The notes below the pieces were generated by a model. That model searched no databases. It worked only from the letters and a program-made list of their open reading frames with translations, and was not told the origin of the DNA. From the NCBI RefSeq assembly GCF_029866485.1, contig NZ_CP092332.1, positions 1,922,001-1,986,000 on the forward strand: a stretch of DNA of 64,000 nt, given 5' to 3'. Below, one piece after another: positions 886 through 10,696 of the stretch. Each line of letters starts with the position of its first letter. Position 1 is the stretch's first letter. The stretch is from Flavobacterium keumense. GTDB taxonomy: Bacteria; Bacteroidota; Bacteroidia; Flavobacteriales; Flavobacteriaceae. Position numbers and translations under genes: made by a program.

Positions 886-1485
886 TTATTTCTGTCTTTT
901 TTTCAAAACTTCAATAACATCATTCATTTGAAAACCTTTGGCTTGAAGCAAAATAAGAAAGTGAAAAAGTAAATCAGCGCTTTCGCTCAAGAACAAATCA
1001 TCGTTAGCATCTTTGGCTTCAATCACTACTTCTACCGCTTCCTCTCCTACTTTTTGAGCAATTTTATTGATCCCTTTTTCGAATAAAGAGGCAACATAAC
1101 TTTTTTCGGCATCAGCATTTTCACGACGGGTTTTGATGGTTTTTTCTAAAGTTGAAATAAAACCATAATTCGGTTGGTTTTCTTCTGCCCAACAGGTATC
1201 GGTGCCATTATGACAAGTTGGTCCCTGCGGACGTACTTGAATCAATAAGGTATCATTATCACAATCGTTCTTGATACTTACTAGGTTTAAAAAGTTGCCG
1301 CTTTCTTCTCCTTTGGTCCAAAGACGTTGTTTGGAACGGCTATAAAAAGTTACTTTTTGAGTAGCTTGTGTTTTGGCGAAAGCCTCTTCGTTCATGTAGC
1401 CCAACATTAATACGGTTTTGGTTTCACTATCTTGAATAATGGCAGGAATTAATCCGTGAGCGCTTTTTGAAAAATCGATGTTCAT
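886..1485 (-). CDS. hisI: Bifunctional phosphoribosyl-AMP cyclohydrolase / phosphoribosyl-ATP pyrophosphatase
   Basis: This is the fused HisIE enzyme for steps 2 and 3 of histidine synthesis in the cytosol. Residues 1-105 are the HisI cyclohydrolase: WTKGEESGN, then NDCDNDTLL with the metal-binding Asp and Cys residues, then GPTCHNGTDTCW with the other two zinc cysteines. Residues 110-199 are the all-helical HisE pyrophosphatase, with the acidic metal-binding run EEAVEVVIEAKD and SADLLFH. The length of 199 aa is normal for the fusion. It is the last gene of the his operon, 33 bases after hisF. No terminator hairpin was found after it. Confidence 0.97.
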   Translation of the reverse strand: MNIDFSKSAHGLIPAIIQDSETKTVLMLGYMNEEAFAKTQATQKVTFYSRSKQRLWTKGEESGNFLNLVSIKNDCDNDTLLIQVRPQGPTCHNGTDTCWAEENQPNYGFISTLEKTIKTRRENADAEKSYVASLFEKGINKIAQKVGEEAVEVVIEAKDANDDLFLSESADLLFHFLILLQAKGFQMNDVIEVLKKRQK

Positions 1486-1518
1486 GTTTGTAATGATGAA
1501 TTATGAGTTTTGAATTAT

Positions 1519-2274
1519 TTAAATTCTTACTTCAATATGATTATTTTGTAATTCTTTTTTTAAGGTCTTAATTTCAATTTCTTTGAAATGAAAAACACTG
1601 GCTGCCAAAGCGGCATCTGCTTTTCCTTCGACAAAGGTATCAATAAAATGTTGCATATTCCCTGCTCCTCCTGAAGCAATAATAGGAATATTTACCAATT
1701 GTGACAATGTAGCCAAAGCCTCGTTAGCAAATCCATTTTTGGTTCCGTCATGATTCATAGAAGTAAACAAGATTTCTCCAGCTCCACGTGTAGCTACTTC
1801 TTTTGCCCAATCAAAAAGTTTAATTTCTGTTGGCACCTTACCTCCTACTAAATGTACTATCCATTCGCCATCAATTTGTTTGGCATCAATAGCTACCACT
1901 ACGCATTGGCTTCCAAATTTCTGAGCCAAATCAGTAATCAATTGCGGATTTTTTACCGCAGAAGAGTTGATCGATACTTTGTCTGCACCGTTTTGCAATA
2001 AGATTTCTACATCTTCTACTGATGCAATTCCCCCACCCACAGTAAACGGAATATTAATCGTTGCAGCAACTTTGCGAACTAAATCCACCAAAGTTTTGCG
2101 GCGTTCTTCTGTGGCAGAAATATCTAGAAAAACAAGTTCGTCAGCACCTTCATCCGAATAGATTTTTGCCAACTCTACAGGATCTCCTGCATCTCGTAAG
2201 TCAACAAAATTGACACCTTTGACAGTTCTTCCGTTTTTGATATCTAAACAAGGAATGATTCTTTTTGTAAGCAT
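1519..2274 (-). CDS. hisF: Imidazole glycerol phosphate synthase, cyclase subunit
   Basis: HisF closes the imidazole ring, using ammonia channelled from HisH, to give IGP and AICAR. It is a complete (beta/alpha)8 barrel of 251 aa. The two catalytic aspartates are in place: D11 in PCLDIKNGR and D130 in VVAIDAKQ. Phosphate-binding loops VGGGIAS (about 79-85) and IASGGAGN (about 200) are intact. It pairs with HisH encoded two genes upstream. The 48-base gap to hisA is AT-rich with no obvious signal. Confidence 0.98.
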
Positions 2275-2322
2275 AGTGTTAATGTAGCAATTGATTAATT
2301 TGTAAATTGATCAATTGTTTAA

Positions 2323-3048
2323 TTATGTTTTTAAAATATAGTTTTCTAATTGTTTCAACGAGATTCTTCCTTCGTAAATCGCTTTTCCAATGATGGTTCC
2401 TTCACAACCTAATTCGGCTAATTGCGGTAATTCATCAAATGTAGAAATACCACCTGAGGCAATTAATTTGATTCCTTTGGCTGTTGCCAAAATTTTAGCA
2501 TACAAATCAAAACTAGGCCCAGCCAACATGCCGTCTTTGGCTATATCGGTACAAATAACGTACTGAATCCCTTTGCTTTGATAGTCTTGAATAAAAGGTA
2601 CTAAATCTTCGTTAGAGTCTTCTAACCAACCCGACACAGCTATTTTTTCATTGGTAGCATCAGCTCCTAAAATGATTTTATCCGAACCGTACTCGGCAAT
2701 CCATTGCTCGAAAATAGCTCTATTTTTTACAGCAATACTTCCACCCGTGATTTGGTTAGCCCCTGATTCAAAAGCAATTTTTAAATCGGCATCGGATTTT
2801 AAGCCACCTCCAAAATCTATTTTCAATTTTGTTTGTGTAGCAATCTGTTCTAGAATTTTGTAATTCACAATTTTGCTTGACTTAGCACCATCTAAATCAA
2901 CCAAGTGTAAATACTCAATTCCGTGTGCTTCAAACGATTTGGCCACTTCAAGCGGATTCTCATTGTAGACAATTTTAGTGTCATAATCTCCTTTGGACAA
3001 ACGAACACATTTTCCGTCTATGATATCTATGGCTGGTATTATTCTCAT
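2323..3048 (-). CDS. hisA: ProFAR isomerase (phosphoribosylformimino-AICAR-P isomerase)
   Basis: HisA performs the Amadori rearrangement of ProFAR to PRFAR, step 4 of histidine synthesis. At 241 aa it has the usual length and is a homologue of HisF. The catalytic acids are D8 (IPAIDIIDG) and D130 (ILGADATN). Phosphate loops are FGGGLKS (about 79-85) and IASGGIST (about 196). It sits between hisH and hisF, the common order. Confidence 0.98.
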
Positions 3049-3076
3049 TCTATATTCGATTTACGATAGTTGAAAT

Positions 3077-3658
3077 TTATAATTTCAAGAAATTAGCTAA
3101 AATTTGTTCACCCACATCGCCACTTTTTTCTGGGTGAAATTGGGTTCCGTAAAAATTATTTTTTTGCAAAGCCGACGCATATTCTACATCATAATTGGTA
3201 TTGGCAATGGCTTCACTGCAATTGGGAACATAATAACTGTGTACTAAATACATGTATTCGTTATCATTAATTCCTTCAAATAAAGCCGATTTCAAATTGT
3301 AAATCTGATTCCACCCCATTTGAGGTACTTTCACCTGAGTAGAAAACCGAATAACATTCGCATCAAAAATCCCTAATCCGTCTGTATTTCCTTCTTCAGA
3401 ATGTTGGCACATTAACTGCATCCCTAAACAGATCCCTAAAACGGGTTGCTTCAAGGTTGGAATCAAATTATCCAAACCACTTTCTTTGAGTTTTTGCATG
3501 GCATAACTCGCTTCTCCAACTCCCGGAAAAATAACTTTATCCGCTTGCAGAATCTCGTCTGGATTATTAGTTAACACGGCTGTATATCCCAAACGTTCAA
3601 TAGCAAATAGAATGCTTTGAATATTTCCCGCGCCGTAATTGATGATAGCAATTTTCAT
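3077..3658 (-). CDS. hisH: Imidazole glycerol phosphate synthase, glutaminase subunit
   Basis: This class I glutamine amidotransferase feeds ammonia to HisF. The triad is visible: C77 in LGICLGMQ, H175 and E177 in TQFHPEKS. Oxyanion-loop residues FPGVGE lie near 44-49. Length 193 aa is normal. It is followed after 28 bases by hisA and preceded by a 78-base AT-rich gap after hisB. Confidence 0.98.
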   Translation of the reverse strand: MKIAIINYGAGNIQSILFAIERLGYTAVLTNNPDEILQADKVIFPGVGEASYAMQKLKESGLDNLIPTLKQPVLGICLGMQLMCQHSEEGNTDGLGIFDANVIRFSTQVKVPQMGWNQIYNLKSALFEGINDNEYMYLVHSYYVPNCSEAIANTNYDVEYASALQKNNFYGTQFHPEKSGDVGEQILANFLKL

Positions 3659-3736
3659 TTATTTTTAACCATTAAGAAATTAAGATTGGTTAAGATTTTT
3701 TATACTTAACCATTCATAATTTACAATTCATAATTA

Positions 3737-4870
3737 TTAAAGCATTCCTTTTGTACTTGGTAAAATCATTTTCTCAGTATCCCGTTTTACAGCTACTTTA
3801 ATCGCTTTGGCGAAAGCCTTAAAAATAGCTTCAATCTTATGATGTTCGTTAGTTCCTTCTGCTTTGATATTGATATTAGCTTTAGCACCATCAGAGAACG
3901 ATTTGAAAAAGTGGTAGAACATCTCTGTTGGCATTTTGCCTACCATTTCACGTTTGAATTCGGTTTCCCAAACCAACCAGTTTCTTCCTCCAAAATCAAT
4001 AGCTACTTGCGATAAGCAATCGTCCATTGGCAAACAAAAACCGTAGCGTTCAATGCCTAATTTATTTCCTAATGCTTTCGCAAAAACTTCTCCTAAAGCA
4101 ATCGCTGTATCTTCAATAGTATGGTGTTCATCTACCTCTAAATCGCCTTTTACGGTAATTTCTAAATCCATTTGACCGTGACGTGCAATTTGGTCTAGCA
4201 TGTGATCAAAAAAGGCAATACCTGTATCGATTTTGCTTTTTCCAGTTCCATCTAAATTCAGATTGATAAAAATATCCGTTTCGTGCGTTTTTCTTTCGAT
4301 AGTAGCAGAACGGGCTTCTAGTTTTAAAAACTCATAGATGGTTTTCCAATCGGTTGTTTGTAATGCAATGACATCGCTAAAATCTTCGTTTTCCTTGATT
4401 TCATCACTTCCTAAACCTTCTTGTTGTTTTAGAAAAATGGCTTTGGCACCTAAGTTTTTTGCTAAGGCAACATCGGTAATTCGGTCGCCCAATACAAATG
4501 AATTTGCTAAATCATACTTCGGATTGTCAATGTATTTGGTTAACATTCCGGTACGAGGTTTGCGTGTAGGTGCATTATCAGCAGGAAACGAACGGTCTAT
4601 AAATATATCGTCAAATAGAACTCCTTCGTTTTCAAACGCTCTTAAAATAAAGTTTTGTGTAGGCCAAAACGTATCTTCTGGAAAACTATCCGTCCCCAAT
4701 CCGTCTTGGTTGGTCACCATTGCCAATTCATAATCCAATTCGTTAGCAATTTTAGCCAAGTATTGAAACACTTTGGGGTAAAATTCTAATTTGTCTAAAC
4801 TGTCTAATTGAAAATCGGCGGGTTCAATAACGATGGTCCCATCACGATCTATAAATAATACTTTTTTCAT
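3737..4870 (-). CDS. hisB: Bifunctional histidinol-phosphatase / imidazoleglycerol-phosphate dehydratase
   Basis: The N-terminal HAD-type phosphatase (about 1-165) carries the DxDGT nucleophile motif (D8, D10), the zinc-type RKPRTGML segment and GDRITD. The C-terminal dehydratase (about 190-377) has the paired manganese-ligand motifs [10 protein letters not shown] and [12 protein letters not shown]. The enzyme thus catalyses steps 6 and 8 of the pathway. The fusion is the same type as in enterobacteria and is usual in Flavobacteriia. It follows the YdeI-like gene by 24 bases. Confidence 0.98.
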
Positions 4871-4894
4871 TTATTTTTTGTCAAAAAGTTAATT

Positions 4895-5515
4895 TTAATA
4901 TTCCATTCCTTTGCCTTGTTTGATAGTAGGAATCCATTTTTCTACGCGAGCTAGCCTAGTTTTTGACTGTTTTGCTTGTGAAAAGAAAAGTAAATAGGCT
5001 TTTTTTCTACCCGGTGTTAATCCCTCAAAGGCAATTCTTAATGCTTCGTCTTCATTTAATTTTTGTTGAAACTCTTCAGGAATCACCATTTCATCAGGTG
5101 TTTTGTATTGAATTTTAATTCCCGATTTTTCTATTTCAATGGCTTCAAAAATATAGGATTTAATACTCTTTTCTATACTTGCAATTTGATCAATACTTGT
5201 AAATTGTAATTGTCGTGTTGCTTGCATATTTTCGGTTTGTGTTACTAAAATTTGTTGGGTGTCTGCAAGCAAAGCGCCTTTGAAAAAACTAATCGCACAA
5301 AAAGCTTTAGTAGTGCCTAACATAATAATATTCTTATTTTGAAAGGTATAACACGGGTGGCTCCACTTCAATTCTTCTACTAGCCCACATTCTAGAATAA
5401 TACTTCTTAACAATTGTAATTCTTTTTCCCAAGTTCGCACACGGCACAAAGGAGTCGCCATTTTTGAACAGCGTCCGCAACCTTCATTAAAGTACGTTTC
5501 TATGTTAGGAATCAT
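4895..5515 (-). CDS. YdeI/OmpD-associated (DUF1801-type) protein inside the his operon
   Basis: This 206-aa protein has two recognisable parts. The N-terminus holds a cysteine cluster (GCGRCSKMATPLC, about 13-25) and the DUF1801-like stretch EELKWSHPCYTF and ISFFKGALL. The C-terminus (about 140-206) is the helical YdeI/OmdA-type domain, IPEEFQQKLNEDEALRIAFEGL, followed by TPGRKKAYLLFFSQAKQ and TRLARVEKWIP. The biochemical role of these proteins is not established, and nothing here points to histidine chemistry. It lies between hisC (13 bases upstream) and hisB (24 bases downstream) on the same strand, so it is presumably co-transcribed. Family call is firm; function is unknown. Confidence 0.8.
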   Translation of the reverse strand: MIPNIETYFNEGCGRCSKMATPLCRVRTWEKELQLLRSIILECGLVEELKWSHPCYTFQNKNIIMLGTTKAFCAISFFKGALLADTQQILVTQTENMQATRQLQFTSIDQIASIEKSIKSYIFEAIEIEKSGIKIQYKTPDEMVIPEEFQQKLNEDEALRIAFEGLTPGRKKAYLLFFSQAKQSKTRLARVEKWIPTIKQGKGMEY

Positions 5516-5528
5516 AATTGTCTAAAAT

Positions 5529-6587
5529 TTAATTCAAGGTTTTTAAAGCAGCCATTAATTTCTTATTTTCCTCTTCCGTTCCAATAGTCAAGCGCAAAGT
5601 ATTTTCGCACAAAGGTTGTCTTGTTCTATTGCGAATCACAATTCCTTTGGCGATTAATTCATCATAACGTTGATTTGCATTATCGACTTTAATCAAGATA
5701 AAGTTGGCTTCAGTAGGATATATTTTTGAAACAAAATTCACTTCATTTAATACTTTAAGTAATTGCTCTCTTTGTTCTATTATAGAATTTATTTCTTCTT
5801 TAATTTTAATTGGATTAGCCAAACGATCTAATGCTCTTTGTTGTGTCAATTCATTTACATTATATGGAGGCTTAATTTTGTTTAAAACCCCAATAATTGC
5901 AGCAGATGCATAACAAATTCCTAATCGAATTCCTGCCAAACCATACGCTTTTGACAAGGTTTGGGTAATAATTAAATTAGGATATGTATTGATTTTTTGA
6001 ATCCACGACGCTTTATCTGAAAAATCAATATAGGCTTCGTCAATCACCACTAATCCATTAAAATTGTCAAGTAAATACTGTACACTTTCCTCTGAAAAAG
6101 AATTTCCTGTTGGATTGTTGGGCGAACAAAGAAAAATCATTTTGGTATTTTTATCTACCGCTTTCATTATTACTTCCAATTGTGGTTGAAAATCTTCGGA
6201 AAGTAAAATCTCTCTATTTTCAATCGCATTCAGATTCGCCAAAACACCATACATTCCGTAAGTTGGTGGCAAAGTAATGACATTGTCTTTTTTTGGTTCA
6301 CAAAAAGCACGGAACAATAAATCCAACACTTCATCACTTCCATTTCCTAATAGGATTTGATTTTTATCCACACCATTTTGTTGGGCTAAAACCGATTTAA
6401 CCGTCACTTGTTGCGGGTCTGGATAGCGATTCACTCCATTTTCAAATGGATTTTCATTGGCATCCAAAAAAATCATATCAGCTGTATCAAAATTTTCAAA
6501 TTCATCGCGTGCTGACGAATAAGGCTTCATGGTTTTGACGTTCTCTCGAACTAAATTGTTGATGTTGAATTTATTTTCCATTTTCAA
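5529..6587 (-). CDS. hisC: Histidinol-phosphate aminotransferase
   Basis: This PLP enzyme converts imidazole-acetol phosphate and glutamate to histidinol phosphate. Fold type I motifs are clear: LDANENPF near 41-48, SPNNPTGN near 155-162, VIDEAYIDF near 181-189, the PLP lysine K213 in QTLSKAYGLAG, and the C-terminal RLTIGTEEEN. The start overlaps the end of hisD by up to 17 bases (6571-6587); an internal ATG at 6581 is an alternative start and still overlaps. The overlap suggests translational coupling. Confidence 0.97.
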   Translation of the reverse strand: MKMENKFNINNLVRENVKTMKPYSSARDEFENFDTADMIFLDANENPFENGVNRYPDPQQVTVKSVLAQQNGVDKNQILLGNGSDEVLDLLFRAFCEPKKDNVITLPPTYGMYGVLANLNAIENREILLSEDFQPQLEVIMKAVDKNTKMIFLCSPNNPTGNSFSEESVQYLLDNFNGLVVIDEAYIDFSDKASWIQKINTYPNLIITQTLSKAYGLAGIRLGICYASAAIIGVLNKIKPPYNVNELTQQRALDRLANPIKIKEEINSIIEQREQLLKVLNEVNFVSKIYPTEANFILIKVDNANQRYDELIAKGIVIRNRTRQPLCENTLRLTIGTEEENKKLMAALKTLN

Positions 6588-7863
6588 TCGCTTTTAAACG
6601 TAATGTAACCGCATTTTTGTGTGCTTGTAGACCTTCTTTCTCTGCCATAATTTCTATAGCTTTACCAATGTTTTGAATTCCAGTTTCGGAAATCTTTTGG
6701 AACGTCATCGACTTCATAAAACTATCCAAATTCACACCGCTATAATTTTTAGCGTATCCATTCGTTGGTAAAGTATGATTGGTTCCAGACGCGTAATCTC
6801 CAGCACTTTCTGGGGTATAATTGCCTATAAAAACCGACCCGGCATTTTCAATATTATCGACATAAAAATTATCATTTTCAGTACAAACTATAAAGTGTTC
6901 AGGGCCGTATTCATTGATTAAATCTAAGGCAATTGCTGCATTTTCAACAAAAATCAATTTGGAATTAGCAATGGCTTTTTCGGCAATTTCTTTTCTTGGT
7001 AAAACTGCTAATTGCGATTGTACTTCTTGTTCTACTGTGTCTATCATTTTCTTAGAAGTAGAAACTAAAATTACCTGACTATCTGTTCCGTGTTCGGCTT
7101 GACTTAATAAATCAGAAGCTACAAAAGCAGGTACGGCGCTATCATCGGCTACTACTAATAATTCTGATGGGCCTGCTGGCATATCAATAGCAACACCAAA
7201 TTGAGTCGCTAATTGTTTCGCCACCGTTACGTATTGATTTCCTGGTCCAAATATTTTATAGACTTTAGGAATAGTGGCGGTACCAAAAGTCATTGCAGCA
7301 ATCGCTTGGATTCCGCCTACTTTTATAATTTTGGTTACACCACAAAGGTTTGCCGCATACAAAATAGCAGGGTTTAAGTTGCCATTTTTATCGGGTGGCG
7401 AACATAAAACTACTTCTTTGCATCCCGCAATTGCAGCAGGAATAGCCAACATCAACACGGTTGAAAATAAAGGAGCAGTTCCTCCAGGAATATACAACCC
7501 TATCTTTTGAATGGGTCTTTTTTCTTGCCAACATTCCACTCCTTCTGCAGTTTCAACACTAACACGAGTTGTGTTTTGAGCTGCGTGGAATTTTTCGATG
7601 TTTGATTTGGCTAATTGAATCGCTTCTTTCAATTCTTCAGAAACAGCGGCAATAGCTAGTTCTATTTCAGCATTGGAAACCAAATTGTTTTCCAAAGCAA
7701 TTCCGTCAAACTGAGATGTATATTGTTGTACCGCTTCGTCTCCTTTGGATTGTACTGCTGCAAAGATTTCTTTTACAGTTGCTTCAATATCGTCCACAGT
7801 TTTAGTGGGTCTTTCTAATAAAGAAGCCCAATTTTCCTGTTTTGGATTGTATATTTTGTTCAT
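6571..7863 (-). CDS. hisD: Histidinol dehydrogenase
   Basis: HisD oxidises histidinol to histidine in two NAD-dependent steps at a zinc site. At 430 aa it has full family length. Characteristic segments are GLYIPGGTAPLFSTVLM, KIFGPGNQYV, AIDMPAGPSELLV, LLSQAEHGTDSQ (zinc and catalytic residues), YGPEHF and DYASGTNHTLPTNGYAKNYS. It is separated from hisG by 88 bases that contain a REP-like palindrome at 7930-7950. Confidence 0.98.
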   Translation of the reverse strand: MNKIYNPKQENWASLLERPTKTVDDIEATVKEIFAAVQSKGDEAVQQYTSQFDGIALENNLVSNAEIELAIAAVSEELKEAIQLAKSNIEKFHAAQNTTRVSVETAEGVECWQEKRPIQKIGLYIPGGTAPLFSTVLMLAIPAAIAGCKEVVLCSPPDKNGNLNPAILYAANLCGVTKIIKVGGIQAIAAMTFGTATIPKVYKIFGPGNQYVTVAKQLATQFGVAIDMPAGPSELLVVADDSAVPAFVASDLLSQAEHGTDSQVILVSTSKKMIDTVEQEVQSQLAVLPRKEIAEKAIANSKLIFVENAAIALDLINEYGPEHFIVCTENDNFYVDNIENAGSVFIGNYTPESAGDYASGTNHTLPTNGYAKNYSGVNLDSFMKSMTFQKISETGIQNIGKAIEIMAEKEGLQAHKNAVTLRLKAIENGK

Positions 7864-7951: not shown

Positions 7952-8809
7952 TTACAACACCATTTTTTCAATTGGGCAAACCAAAATGCCTTCGGCACCA
8001 GCTGCTTTTAATTCGTCAATTACTTCCCAAAACCGATCTTCTTCAATAACGGTGTGCACACTTGACCAACCTTCTTGTGCCAATGGCATTACTGTTGGAC
8101 TTTTTAAAACGGGTAAAATGGAACTAATTTCTTTTATTTTATCATTCGGTACATTCATCAAAATGTATTTTGATTTACGCGCTCTTAAAACCGATTGGAT
8201 TCGGAACTGCAATTTGTCTAAAATTACTTTGTTTTCAGGAGTCATTTTAGGTGAAACAGCTAAAACGGCTTCACTCTTAAAAATAACTTCTACTTCTTTT
8301 AAATTATTTTTAAACAAAGTACTTCCGCTAGAAACAATATCTACAATAGCATCGGCCAAACCAATGTTAGGTGCTATTTCTACAGAACCTGAGATTTGGT
8401 GCAAATCAACATTTACATTTTTAGAATTAAAGAAATCTAAAACAGTATTGGGATACGAAGTAGCAATTCGCAAGCCATCCAAATCTTTCACCGAATTATA
8501 GTTGAAACTTTTAGGAACAGCTACGGAAACTTTGCATTTTGAAAATCCTAATTTTTCAGCTACTTCAATGCTTTTACCTTTTTCAACTAATAGATTATCA
8601 CCAACAATAGCGACATCTACTACTCCGTCGATCAAATATTGAGGAATGTCTGAATTTCGTAAGTATAGAACTTCTAAAGGAAAATTTGAAGCGGTGGCTT
8701 TTAATTGGTCATTCCCATTGTTAATAGAAATACCGCAGTCTTTTAGGATTTGGATGCTATCTTCGTTTAAGCGCCCTGATTTTTGAATTGCAATTTTTAA
8801 AGTACTCAT
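7952..8809 (-). CDS. hisG: ATP phosphoribosyltransferase, long form
   Basis: HisG makes phosphoribosyl-ATP from ATP and PRPP, the committed and feedback-inhibited step of histidine synthesis. The 285-aa length and C-terminal ACT-like regulatory domain (about 210-285, ending GAEGILVCPIEKMVL) identify the long, HisZ-independent form, expected to bind histidine allosterically. Catalytic-domain motifs include QKSGRLNEDS at the N-terminus, DVAIVGDNLL and the PRPP loop VSSGSTLFKNN. It is the first structural gene of the operon, downstream of the attenuator at 8862-8977. Confidence 0.98.
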   Translation of the reverse strand: MSTLKIAIQKSGRLNEDSIQILKDCGISINNGNDQLKATASNFPLEVLYLRNSDIPQYLIDGVVDVAIVGDNLLVEKGKSIEVAEKLGFSKCKVSVAVPKSFNYNSVKDLDGLRIATSYPNTVLDFFNSKNVNVDLHQISGSVEIAPNIGLADAIVDIVSSGSTLFKNNLKEVEVIFKSEAVLAVSPKMTPENKVILDKLQFRIQSVLRARKSKYILMNVPNDKIKEISSILPVLKSPTVMPLAQEGWSSVHTVIEEDRFWEVIDELKAAGAEGILVCPIEKMVL

Positions 8810-8861
8810 TGTTTTGTTGTTTTTGTTTGTTGTGATTTGAGTACAACAGATTTTTAATAAA

Positions 8862-8893
8862 AAACCCGCTTGATGTACTCAAACGGGTTTTTA
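8862..8893 (-). terminator. his operon attenuator (intrinsic terminator)
   Basis: Read on the minus strand, AAAACCCGTTTGA, a loop GTACA and TCAAGCGGGTTTT form a 13-bp stem with one U-G pair, followed by a run of T. It lies between the leader peptide stop (8918) and hisG (8809). Its 5' arm also pairs with CTCAAGCG inside the leader peptide (8927-8934), giving two exclusive structures. It could additionally stop transcripts coming from pckA. Confidence 0.9.
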
Positions 8894-8917
8894 AATATGT
8901 GACTTACACGCATACCA

Positions 8918-8977
8918 TTAACACATCGCTTGAGAGCAATTTTGTAAATGATGATGATGTAATTGATTTGATAACAT
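8918..8977 (-). CDS. hisL: Histidine operon leader peptide (four consecutive His codons)
   Basis: A 19-codon frame, MLSNQLHHHHLQNCSQAMC, runs from ATG at 8977 to TAA at 8918. Codons 7-10 (8948-8959) are all CAT. The Ser-Gln-Ala codons (8927-8935) contain the antiterminator CTCAAGCG, complementary to CGTTTGAG in the 5' arm of the downstream terminator. A ribosome stalled for lack of His-tRNA on the CAT codons would leave this segment free to pair with the terminator arm and allow read-through. A ribosome reaching the stop codon would cover it and let the terminator form. Too short for standard gene finding; the supporting evidence is the geometry. Confidence 0.9.
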   Translation of the reverse strand: MLSNQLHHHHLQNCSQAMC

Positions 8978-9011
8978 AAATTTTAATTAGAAATTTTCTT
9001 GATTTCGTGTG

Positions 9012-9043
9012 CAAATATAAAATAAAATATAGTAACCACCCAA
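9012..9043 (-). promoter_or_regulatory. Promoter of the his operon leader
   Basis: On the minus strand, TTG (9043-9041), a 21-base spacer and TATATTTG (9019-9012) match the Bacteroidetes consensus TTG-N17-23-TAnnTTTG. Transcription would start a few bases downstream, about 30 bases before the leader peptide ATG at 8977. Confidence 0.75.
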
Positions 9044-9088: not shown

Positions 9089-10696
9089 CTAACTTAATGT
9101 TGGTCCTGCGCTAACTAATCGTTTTCCTTCTTCTGTATTGGTATATTGTTCAAAGTTTTTAATGTAACGGGCTGCTAGATCTTTTGCTCTACGCTCCCAT
9201 TCTGCTTTGTCTTGATACGTATCTCTTGGATCTAAAATACCATCGCTTACATTAGGTAAAACCGTTGGAATAGTTAAATTTAAGAACGGAATTGCTCGGG
9301 TTTCGGCTTCTTCAATTTCGCCACTAATAATGGCATCAATTATGGCTCTGGTATTTTTTAATGAAATTCGTTTACCTGTTCCATTCCATCCAGTGTTAAC
9401 CAAATAGGCTTTAGCACCGTGTTCTTTCATTTTCCCAATTAAGGTTTGAGAATAACGTGTTGGATGTAATGTCAAGAAAGCCTCTCCAAAAGCGGGTGAA
9501 AACGAAGGTACAGGTTCTGTGATTCCTCTTTCAGTACCGGCTAATTTTGAGGTATATCCGCATAAAAAGTGGTATTGTGCTTGATCATCATCCAAGATAG
9601 AAACTGGAGGCAATACTCCAAAAGCGTCTGCTGAAAGGTAAATTATTTTTTTTGCATGTCCCGCTTTTGAAGGCAATACAATTTTATTGATGTGATAAAT
9701 AGGATATGAAACTCTTGAGTTTTCAGTGATAGAATGGTCATAGTAATTAATTTCACCGTATTCATCTACAATTACATTTTCTAAAAGCGCATCCCTTTTG
9801 ATGGCTCTCCAAATGTCTGGTTCGTTTTTCTCTGATAAATCAATTACTTTAGCATAGCATCCACCTTCAAAATTGAACACTCCATTATCGTCCCAACCGT
9901 GTTCGTCATCTCCAATCAAATAGCGTTTTGGATCAGCTGAAAGAGTTGTTTTTCCAGTGCCTGAAAGACCAAAAAATATGGCTACATCTCCTTCTTCACC
10001 CACATTAGCAGAACAGTGCATAGAGGCCATTCCTTTAAGTGGTAAATAGTAGTTCATCATAGAGAACATTCCTTTTTTCATTTCGCCCCCATACCAAGTA
10101 CCTCCTATGAGTTGGATTTTTTCAGTAAGATTAAAGACAACAAAATTTTCAGAATTCAAACCGTGTTTTTGCCAATCGGGATTTGTAGTTTTAGAACCAT
10201 TCATAACAACAAAATCGGGTTCTCCAAAATTTTCTAATTCATATCCAGATGGTCTAATAAACATATTAGTTACAAAATGTGCCTGCCAAGCTACTTCCAT
10301 TACAAAACGAACCTTCAATCGGGTATCTGGATTGGTACCACAAAAAGCATCTACTACATATAATTTAGACGAAGTTGACAATTGTTTCAGCACTAATTTT
10401 TTTAAATCACGCCAAACGGATTGTGTAGTTGGGAAATTCACTTTATCATCCCAATAAATAGTATCTTTAGTTACATCATCTTTTACAATATATCGGTCTT
10501 TTGGTGAACGCCCCGTAAAAATTCCTGTTTTCACTGCTACCGCACCCGTATCGGTCAAAGCTCCTTTTTCAAATCCTTTTCTACGATGCGACATTTCATC
10601 TTGAAACAATTCTTCATAGGAAGGATTGTACGAAACTTCATGATATCCCGTAATTCCTAAATCGTGTAATTCTTGAATAATTCTGATGTTTTTCAT
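9089..10696 (-). CDS. pckA: Phosphoenolpyruvate carboxykinase (ATP)
   Basis: PckA converts oxaloacetate and ATP to PEP, CO2 and ADP, the entry to gluconeogenesis. The 535-aa protein is full length. It has the kinase-1a loop [15 protein letters not shown], the metal-binding [11 protein letters not shown], the GGxYAKxIDLS segment ([11 protein letters not shown]), the substrate loop [10 protein letters not shown] and the C-terminal [13 protein letters not shown]. It stands alone between the his promoter and the metal-efflux cluster. A TAATTTTG -7 element lies on the minus strand at 10734-10741. Confidence 0.98.

What the first reader, a model, noticed from the sequence alone, without database searches (positions are those of the whole stretch)
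8862..9043. Complete His-codon attenuator in front of a flavobacterial his operon
The sequence shows a promoter (9012-9043), a 19-codon leader with four CAT codons in a row (8948-8959), an 8-base antiterminator CTCAAGCG (8927-8934) inside the leader, and a 13-bp terminator stem (8862-8893) whose 5' arm is complementary to it. The stop codon lies just past the antiterminator, exactly where a ribosome would mask it. The mechanism is known from enterobacterial hisL; in a phylum without Shine-Dalgarno-led initiation it is notable and probably unannotated.
Basis: partly seen in the sequence, partly recalled or inferred. Interest (0 to 1): 0.75.

Follow-up and report, generated by a model that had tools for sequence, protein, structure and literature searches.

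The report
Histidine operon leader-peptide attenuator in Flavobacterium
In front of the histidine genes of a Flavobacterium lies a short histidine-rich reading frame and an RNA switch that should shut the genes off when histidine is plentiful; the design is the classical one, with an extra RNA strand beside the first gene whose role is not known.

Summary
The window carries a 19-codon leader (MLSNQLHHHHLQNCSQAMC), a proximal hairpin, an antiterminator strand and an intrinsic terminator before a complete his operon. All 110 family loci examined have a leader with two or more consecutive His codons (103 with three or more); 109 have a terminator by my rule. Spacing is nearly invariant, and all three helices show compensatory changes. 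Folding predicts the window's antiterminator at 0.99 with a ribosome stalled on His codon 2 and 0.00 with one at the stop. In other families of the phylum leader and terminator arm are rewritten together.

The kind is known: a 2021 F. psychrophilum transcriptome paper reported leader-peptide attenuation clues and a conserved 5' element before hisG, and Rfam holds the sister trp element, also present in this genome.

New here, as far as I could search: element D, a strand between terminator and hisG that pairs with the terminator loop and 5' arm. It tracks 16 loops (0 of 2000 permutations) and in my sample is confined to the window's family and family f2. Its role is unknown; I suggest a second, translational tier. 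Some distant families keep a His-rich leader without a visible intrinsic terminator.

The parts
9012..9043 (-). Promoter: TTG 9043-9041 and -7 box TATATTTG 9019-9012; transcription start predicted near 9007, 5' UTR about 30 nt
   Evidence: Sequence; full TAnnTTTG match with a TTG at the right distance (L001); box position -12 to -5 from PMC9723704 (passages)
8918..8977 (-). Leader ORF MLSNQLHHHHLQNCSQAMC plus stop
   Evidence: Sequence; same ORF type in 110 of 110 family loci
8948..8959 (-). Four CAT (His) codons in a row, the sensing codons
   Evidence: runs of 2, 3 or 4 His in 7, 57 and 46 of 110 loci
8904..8962 (-). Proximal (1:2) hairpin; its 5' side contains the His codons, its top holds the antiterminator strand
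   Evidence: conserved 15-pair part with 8 pairs changed on both sides
8927..8934 (-). Antiterminator strand CTCAAGCG inside the leader ORF
8878..8885 (-). Its partner CGTTTGAG in the terminator 5' arm
   Evidence: All 8 pairs form in 92 of 110 rows, at least 6 in all 110
8859..8892 (-). Intrinsic terminator: 14-pair stem 8892-8879/8873-8860, loop 8878-8874, T run 8864-8859
8835..8845 (-). Element D, TGTACTCAAAT, complementary to 8884-8874 (terminator 5' arm and loop), 25 nt before the hisG start codon
7952..8809 (-). hisG, first gene of the operon
   Evidence: TIGR00070, 191.4 bits, cut-off 75.75
886..7863 (-). Rest of the operon: hisD, hisC, an unnamed ORF (4895-5515), hisNB, hisH, hisA, hisF, hisIE
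   Evidence: Each his gene over its NCBIfam cut-off; the unnamed ORF has no NCBIfam match

Best explanation
A ribosome-mediated transcription attenuator of the his operon, working like enterobacterial hisL. RNA polymerase transcribes the leader with a ribosome behind it. With enough His-tRNA the ribosome reaches the stop codon and covers CUCAAGCG; the 5' arm then pairs with the 3' arm and transcription ends before hisG. When His-tRNA is short the ribosome stalls on the CAU codons, which breaks the proximal hairpin but leaves CUCAAGCG free; it pairs with the 5' arm and transcription goes on. With no ribosome, in this window's RNA, the proximal hairpin holds CUCAAGCG and termination is the default. 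Shown: sequence, conservation, spacing, covariation, in-silico switching. Inferred: leader translation, coupling of ribosome and polymerase, response to histidine.
For: His run in 110 of 110 family loci examined, terminator by rule in 109. First His run to antiterminator 13 nt in 94 of 109, antiterminator to stop 3 nt in 103 of 109. Two-sided changes at 3 of 8 antiterminator pairs, 7 of 14 terminator pairs, 8 of 15 proximal-hairpin pairs. L061 has leader strand, 5' arm and 3' arm all changed with both pairings kept. P(antiterminator) in the window 0.00 without ribosome, 0.99 stalled, 0.00 at stop; means over 109 loci 0.59, 0.95, 0.00. Outside the family, leaders fit their own arm better than arms of other families: 18.7 against 13.2, 28 of 49 in the top 5%. 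The same genome has the Rfam trp leader before trpE.
Against: No expression data. Antiterminator covariation is modest: 5'-arm strand identical in 103 of 110 rows, 6 two-sided cells; the shuffle control does not correct for relatedness. In 21 of 49 loci outside the family own-arm fit is not in the top 5%, and L238 and L304 fit worse than every swap. In one locus (L079) the modelled stall does not favour the antiterminator. Footprint sizes are assumed.
Confidence: 0.93

Rival explanations
1. Two-tier attenuator: the classical switch plus element D, which in read-through mRNA pairs with the terminator loop and 5' arm next to the hisG start (as a pseudoknot or by strand exchange) and lowers hisG translation, unless the leader strand already occupies the 5' arm because a ribosome is stalled. 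This extends the best explanation rather than replacing it.
For: Best downstream complement beats shuffled spacers at p 0.05 in 63 of 109 family loci; among 42 strict cases 16 loops are tracked, Watson-Crick 0.855 against 0.502 permuted, 0 of 2000; 6 of 6 tested f2 loci; 71 of 77 named loci; D ends 13-20 nt before hisG in 34 of 42 strict cases, random placement mean 11.
Against: 46 of 109 family loci do not reach p 0.05. Nested equilibrium folds favour the terminator stem (mean P 0.84) over the D duplex (0.15); in the window 0.98 and 0.01. Modelled openness of the hisG start region does not differ between ribosome states. In the duplex types printed for the named loci, mostly Flavobacterium, D often lies 22-36 nt from the start, so the distance is not fixed. 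D is made after the terminator and cannot affect that decision.
Confidence: 0.3
2. No regulation: the hairpin is an ordinary terminator of the upstream gene pckA and the ORF is fortuitous.
For: pckA lies upstream on the same strand.
Against: The ORF, its His run and its codon-exact spacing to the pairing strands are conserved; a promoter lies between pckA and the leader; in many relatives the sequence further upstream differs while the leader stays (part of the output seen).
Confidence: 0.02
3. A histidine- or tRNA-binding RNA (riboswitch, T-box) or a repressor such as HisR controls the operon, and the leader ORF plays no part.
For: T-boxes and HisR control his genes in other phyla (PMC9413887, start of abstract in the listing).
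Against: No Rfam family reaches its gathering score in the window; the covarying helices are explained by leader, antiterminator and terminator; codon-exact spacing has no use in a ligand sensor. A repressor site was not searched for.
Confidence: 0.03

Closest known systems
Enterobacterial his attenuator hisL (details recalled; mentioned in PMC8305728 and PMC4046918, passages or abstract)
   Same: His-codon leader ORF, proximal hairpin, antiterminator, terminator, all before hisG
   Different: Different sequence; shorter leader and fewer His codons than hisL (recalled: 7 in a row); no Rfam match in the window; element D has no counterpart that I recall
Structured 5' element upstream of hisG and leader-peptide attenuation clues in F. 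psychrophilum (PMC9723704, passages)
   Same: Very probably the same element: R1 finds it upstream of hisG in F. psychrophilum (L182, 119.3 bits)
   Different: In the passages seen no antiterminator, spacing or D is described; its supplement was not available to me
Bacteroid-trp, RF01692 (table entry in PMC2864571)
   Same: Leader ORF with Trp codons and a terminator before trpE; in this genome 66.7 bits, gathering score 49, leader MITNTNNTWWWNNLRQSS
   Different: Senses Trp; other arms; no D-like complement in the 8 relatives tested
Histidine leader peptide before hisS/hisZ in bacilli (PMC2965389, passages)
   Same: Short ORF with a stretch of His codons and attenuation
   Different: Controls synthetase genes in Firmicutes, no sequence relation shown

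Membership tests
Ribosome-mediated transcription attenuator (hisL/trpL type) | Short leader ORF with codons for the amino acid that the operon makes | tested here: met
   Four His codons in the window; 110 of 110 family loci
Ribosome-mediated transcription attenuator (hisL/trpL type) | Intrinsic terminator between leader and first gene | tested here: met
   14-pair stem and T run; 109 of 110 by rule; pair counts
Ribosome-mediated transcription attenuator (hisL/trpL type) | Antiterminator that excludes the terminator | tested here: met
   8 pairs with the 5' arm; 97.8% of cells paired, modest covariation
Ribosome-mediated transcription attenuator (hisL/trpL type) | Ribosome position decides between the two folds | tested here: met
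   Spacing and in-silico folding with assumed footprints; computation only
Ribosome-mediated transcription attenuator (hisL/trpL type) | Leader is translated and read-through rises when the amino acid is short | not testable with these tools
   Needs ribosome profiling and term-seq
Any Rfam family, among them His_leader (RF00514, accession recalled) | Score at or above the gathering score | tested here: not met
   0 matches in the whole window
Bacteroid-trp RF01692 | Score at or above the gathering score at this locus | tested here: not met
   No match in the window; the one match in this genome is upstream of trpE

The most novel reading that the evidence does not exclude
The flavobacterial his leader is a five-strand device: the terminator's 5' arm and loop are contested by the leader strand, the 3' arm and a third strand D near the hisG start, so that one ribosome position sets both transcription read-through and hisG translation. 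D was added within the window's order to an attenuator that spans the phylum, while other lineages (f24, f3, f51) kept the His-rich leader, show no intrinsic terminator by my rule in all but one of 36 leaders, and have a G-poor, C-richer spacer, as Rho-dependent attenuation would need.
Probability: 0.27. Interest if true: 0.68.

Novelty: new variant of a known kind. Interest (0 to 1): 0.48.

Why it matters
Ribosome-mediated attenuation needs a ribosome close behind RNA polymerase. Here it is conserved in bacteria whose ribosomes do not use Shine-Dalgarno sequences (PMC9976891 abstract in listing; PMC6847099 passages), and in part of the family the leader start lies so near the promoter box that the transcript may be nearly leaderless. 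The his leader is thus a natural readout of transcription-translation coupling in this group. Element D, if it acts on translation, would add a control layer to one of the oldest textbook switches. The alignment and model also allow annotation of a his leader that the Rfam copy searched does not match in the window.

Tried and rejected
Weak R1 hits were not counted as leaders. Of 392 phylum genomes 118 have a hit at E 0.01 (with stricter filters), but only 48 score 66 bits or more: 44 in family f1, two in f2, one each in f35 and f39. Of the 20 places fetched, four (L234, L236, L237, L239) are terminators without a His leader or hisG, L236 being the second hit in the window's own genome. In one search, 78 of 162 matches score 85 bits or more; the rest are 47 bits or less, most of them on the opposite strand over the same hairpin.

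ilvD of the own genome shows no leader-peptide attenuator in the stretch read; for the two homoserine dehydrogenase matches the stretch read lies inside the long ORF and says nothing.

Scripts mended: one search used an off-by-one terminator index and a wrong antiterminator offset for leaders like the window's, so its antiterminator and terminator columns are void. One search mended the terminator index but kept the wrong offset and gave 0 for the window's antiterminator; one search replaces that part.

Rows dropped: of 267 family genomes with HisG 110 were studied, towards the high-scoring end; five listed hits on short contigs (G121, G165, G228, G278, G281) were passed over and the lower part of the list was not fetched. 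L101 was left out of the spacing count and L059 out of the D and folding tests, because their strands did not fit my search patterns. Of 252 phylum genomes with HisG 102 outside f1 were studied; low-scoring HisG groups such as f18 and f14 were not listed and not examined. Eleven more of the 113 loci came from R1 hits and are biased; all eleven have a leader. L257 was not tested for D (spacer of 2 nt by my start estimate).

The -7 box rule accepts one mismatch and prefers the nearer box on ties, which favours short distances; 13 of 110 loci had no box by this rule.

Literature: eight full-text searches. In the listings and passages seen I found no description of D or of a phylum-wide his leader. 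Most subscription papers are outside that library; Lopatovskaya et al. 2010 (seen only as a reference) may hold Bacteroidetes cases. Papers: passages seen of PMC9723704, PMC4833913, PMC8305728, PMC7366714, PMC2864571, PMC6847099, PMC9976891, PMC2965389 and PMC1262725; others as listings or starts of abstracts only.

Full report
Anatomy. On the minus strand, between pckA (9089-10696) and hisG (7952-8809), lie a Bacteroidota-type promoter, a 19-codon leader ORF with four CAT codons and a 14-pair terminator. The operon behind it is complete: hisG, hisD, hisC, an unnamed ORF, hisNB, hisH, hisA, hisF, hisIE, all but the unnamed ORF over an NCBIfam cut-off. The leader region folds far better than shuffled sequence (z -5.38). 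No Rfam family matches in the window. The closest named genome found is Flavobacterium ammonificans, HisG 96% identical.

Conservation. HisG occurs in 267 of 299 genomes searched in the window's family. I studied 110 loci, the window's own included, towards the high-scoring end of that list. All 110 have a short ORF with at least two His codons in a row, 103 with three or more; 109 have a terminator by my rule, and the last (L047) has one with a mismatch. The end of the first His run and the antiterminator are 13 nt apart in 94 of 109, antiterminator and stop codon 3 nt apart in 103 of 109; the window has 6 nt there. Among 80 named relatives, mostly Flavobacterium and including F. johnsoniae and F. 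psychrophilum, model R1 finds it in 77; two are cut by contig ends and one holds only 40 nt upstream.

Structure. On alignment A2 (110 rows) the antiterminator pairs in 97.8% of cells with two-sided changes at 3 of 8 pairs, the terminator in 89.3% with 7 of 14, the proximal hairpin in 88.1% with 8 of 15 and 92 two-sided cells against 28.5 in shuffles. The inner part of the proximal hairpin alone is weaker: 22 of its pair-level shuffle comparisons are not decisive, since 96 and 152 of 500 shuffles reach the observed counts of changed pairs and pair types. The shuffle control ignores relatedness; the slide control keeps it, and the true register is clearly best for pairing. In L061 the leader strand (TTCAGGTG), the 5' arm (CATCTGAA) and the 3' arm (TCAGATGG) have all changed and both pairings survive.

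Switching in silico. For transcripts that end before the 3' arm, with ribosome footprints of assumed size blocked, the window's antiterminator has probability 0.00 without a ribosome, 0.99 with one stalled at His codon 2 and 0.00 with one at the stop codon. Means over 109 loci are 0.59, 0.95 and 0.00; the stall gives at least 0.5 in 108 of 109 and beats both other states in 105. In 66 of 109 loci the antiterminator also reaches 0.5 without any ribosome, so default termination is not general.

Spread. Outside the family I examined 113 hisG upstream regions (102 picked by HisG search alone, 11 from R1 hits). A His-rich leader beyond 60 shuffles is seen in 100 of 113, 89 of 102 in the unbiased part; 49 of the 100 have an intrinsic terminator by my rule. 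Arms differ between families (for example CCGTCTGAG, GGCTTACC, CTACCTG, CCGGCGC), yet leaders fit their own arm: mean score 18.7 against 13.2 with arms of other families, 28 of 49 in the top 5%, two of 49 at the bottom. In f24 (28 of 29 loci with a significant leader, one with a terminator by rule), f3 (7 of 7, none) and f51 (1 of 1, none) the leader stays but no intrinsic terminator is visible; the f24 spacer is 8.9% G and 23.7% C. Rho-dependent control there is a guess.

Element D. Downstream of the terminator, 25 nt before hisG in the window, TGTACTCAAAT is complementary to GTTTGAGTACA of the 5' arm and loop. In 63 of 109 family loci the best downstream complement reaches p 0.05 against shuffled spacers, about five being expected. 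By a strict rule 42 of 109 carry it, with 16 different loops, and D follows them: Watson-Crick fraction 0.855 against 0.502 when D strands are permuted among loops, 0 of 2000. It is present in 6 of 6 tested loci of f2 and in 71 of 77 named loci. Of the other 42 loci with a terminator tested outside f1 and f2 one reaches p 0.05 (L242), and none of 8 trp leaders does. In the strict set D ends 13-20 nt before the start codon in 34 of 42, against 11 for random placement; in the duplex types printed for the named loci it is often farther, 22-36 nt. Its effect is unknown. It is made after the terminator and cannot influence that decision; its place suggests translation of hisG, through a pseudoknot with the terminator loop or by strand exchange. 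Against this, nested equilibrium folds favour the terminator over the D duplex, and modelled openness of the start region does not differ between states. I hold it at about 0.3.

Near-leaderless leaders. In 42 of 97 family loci with a -7 box by a lenient rule, nine or fewer bases lie between box and leader start. With the box at -12 to -5 the 5' UTR would be about 2-5 nt, whereas leaderless mRNAs are 5.5% of those mapped in F. psychrophilum (PMC9723704, passages). The window has about 30 nt.

Known or new. The 2021 F. psychrophilum paper reports strong clues for leader-peptide attenuation upstream of amino-acid operons and a structured element upstream of hisG, shared with other genera and without Rfam hit (PMC9723704, passages). 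The sister trp element is Rfam RF01692, listed in 2010 (PMC2864571, table), and lies upstream of trpE here (66.7 bits); a likely pheA leader, MCNNRFYFSNTYYFFFRK, is visible too. What I did not find in the papers seen is the pairing logic tested across the phylum, element D, and the lineages without a terminator.

Noticed in passing
f24 loci (L311, L312, L315-L318, L320-L330, L337, L340-L350) and f3 loci (L288, L289, L291-L295): His-rich leaders with scattered His codons (e.g. MKKNQLHTSHCFHHDVHHAHHGHHHVH) but no intrinsic terminator by my rule (one f24 exception); the f24 spacer is G-poor and C-richer, and many f24 leaders start with GTG a few bases after a TAnnTTTG-like box.
   Followed up: partly
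L266, L269, L277, L283 (f8) and L284 (f9): Leaders ending in HHSS with an inverted repeat such as TTCCTCTTGAGAGGAA over the stop codon and no terminator by my rule; other f8 loci (L251, L272, L278) have a terminator.
   Followed up: no
G000:C1:1704448-1704566 (-), upstream of trpE; L352: Bacteroid-trp RF01692 at 66.7 bits; trp leader MITNTNNTWWWNNLRQSS.
   Followed up: partly
L351, upstream of pheA in the own genome: Likely phe leader MCNNRFYFSNTYYFFFRK followed by a hairpin with a T run.
   Followed up: no
window 4895-5515 (-): A 206-aa ORF inside the his operon, between hisC and hisNB, without an NCBIfam match.
   Followed up: no
L221 (G440, f35) and L222 (G539, f39): Leader and HisG much like the window's order in genomes placed outside its class; transfer or misplaced contigs are both possible.
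   Followed up: no
Leader starts of about 42 family loci, e.g. L007, L009, L013: The -7 box lies 6-9 nt before the leader start codon, so the leader transcript may be nearly leaderless.
   Followed up: partly
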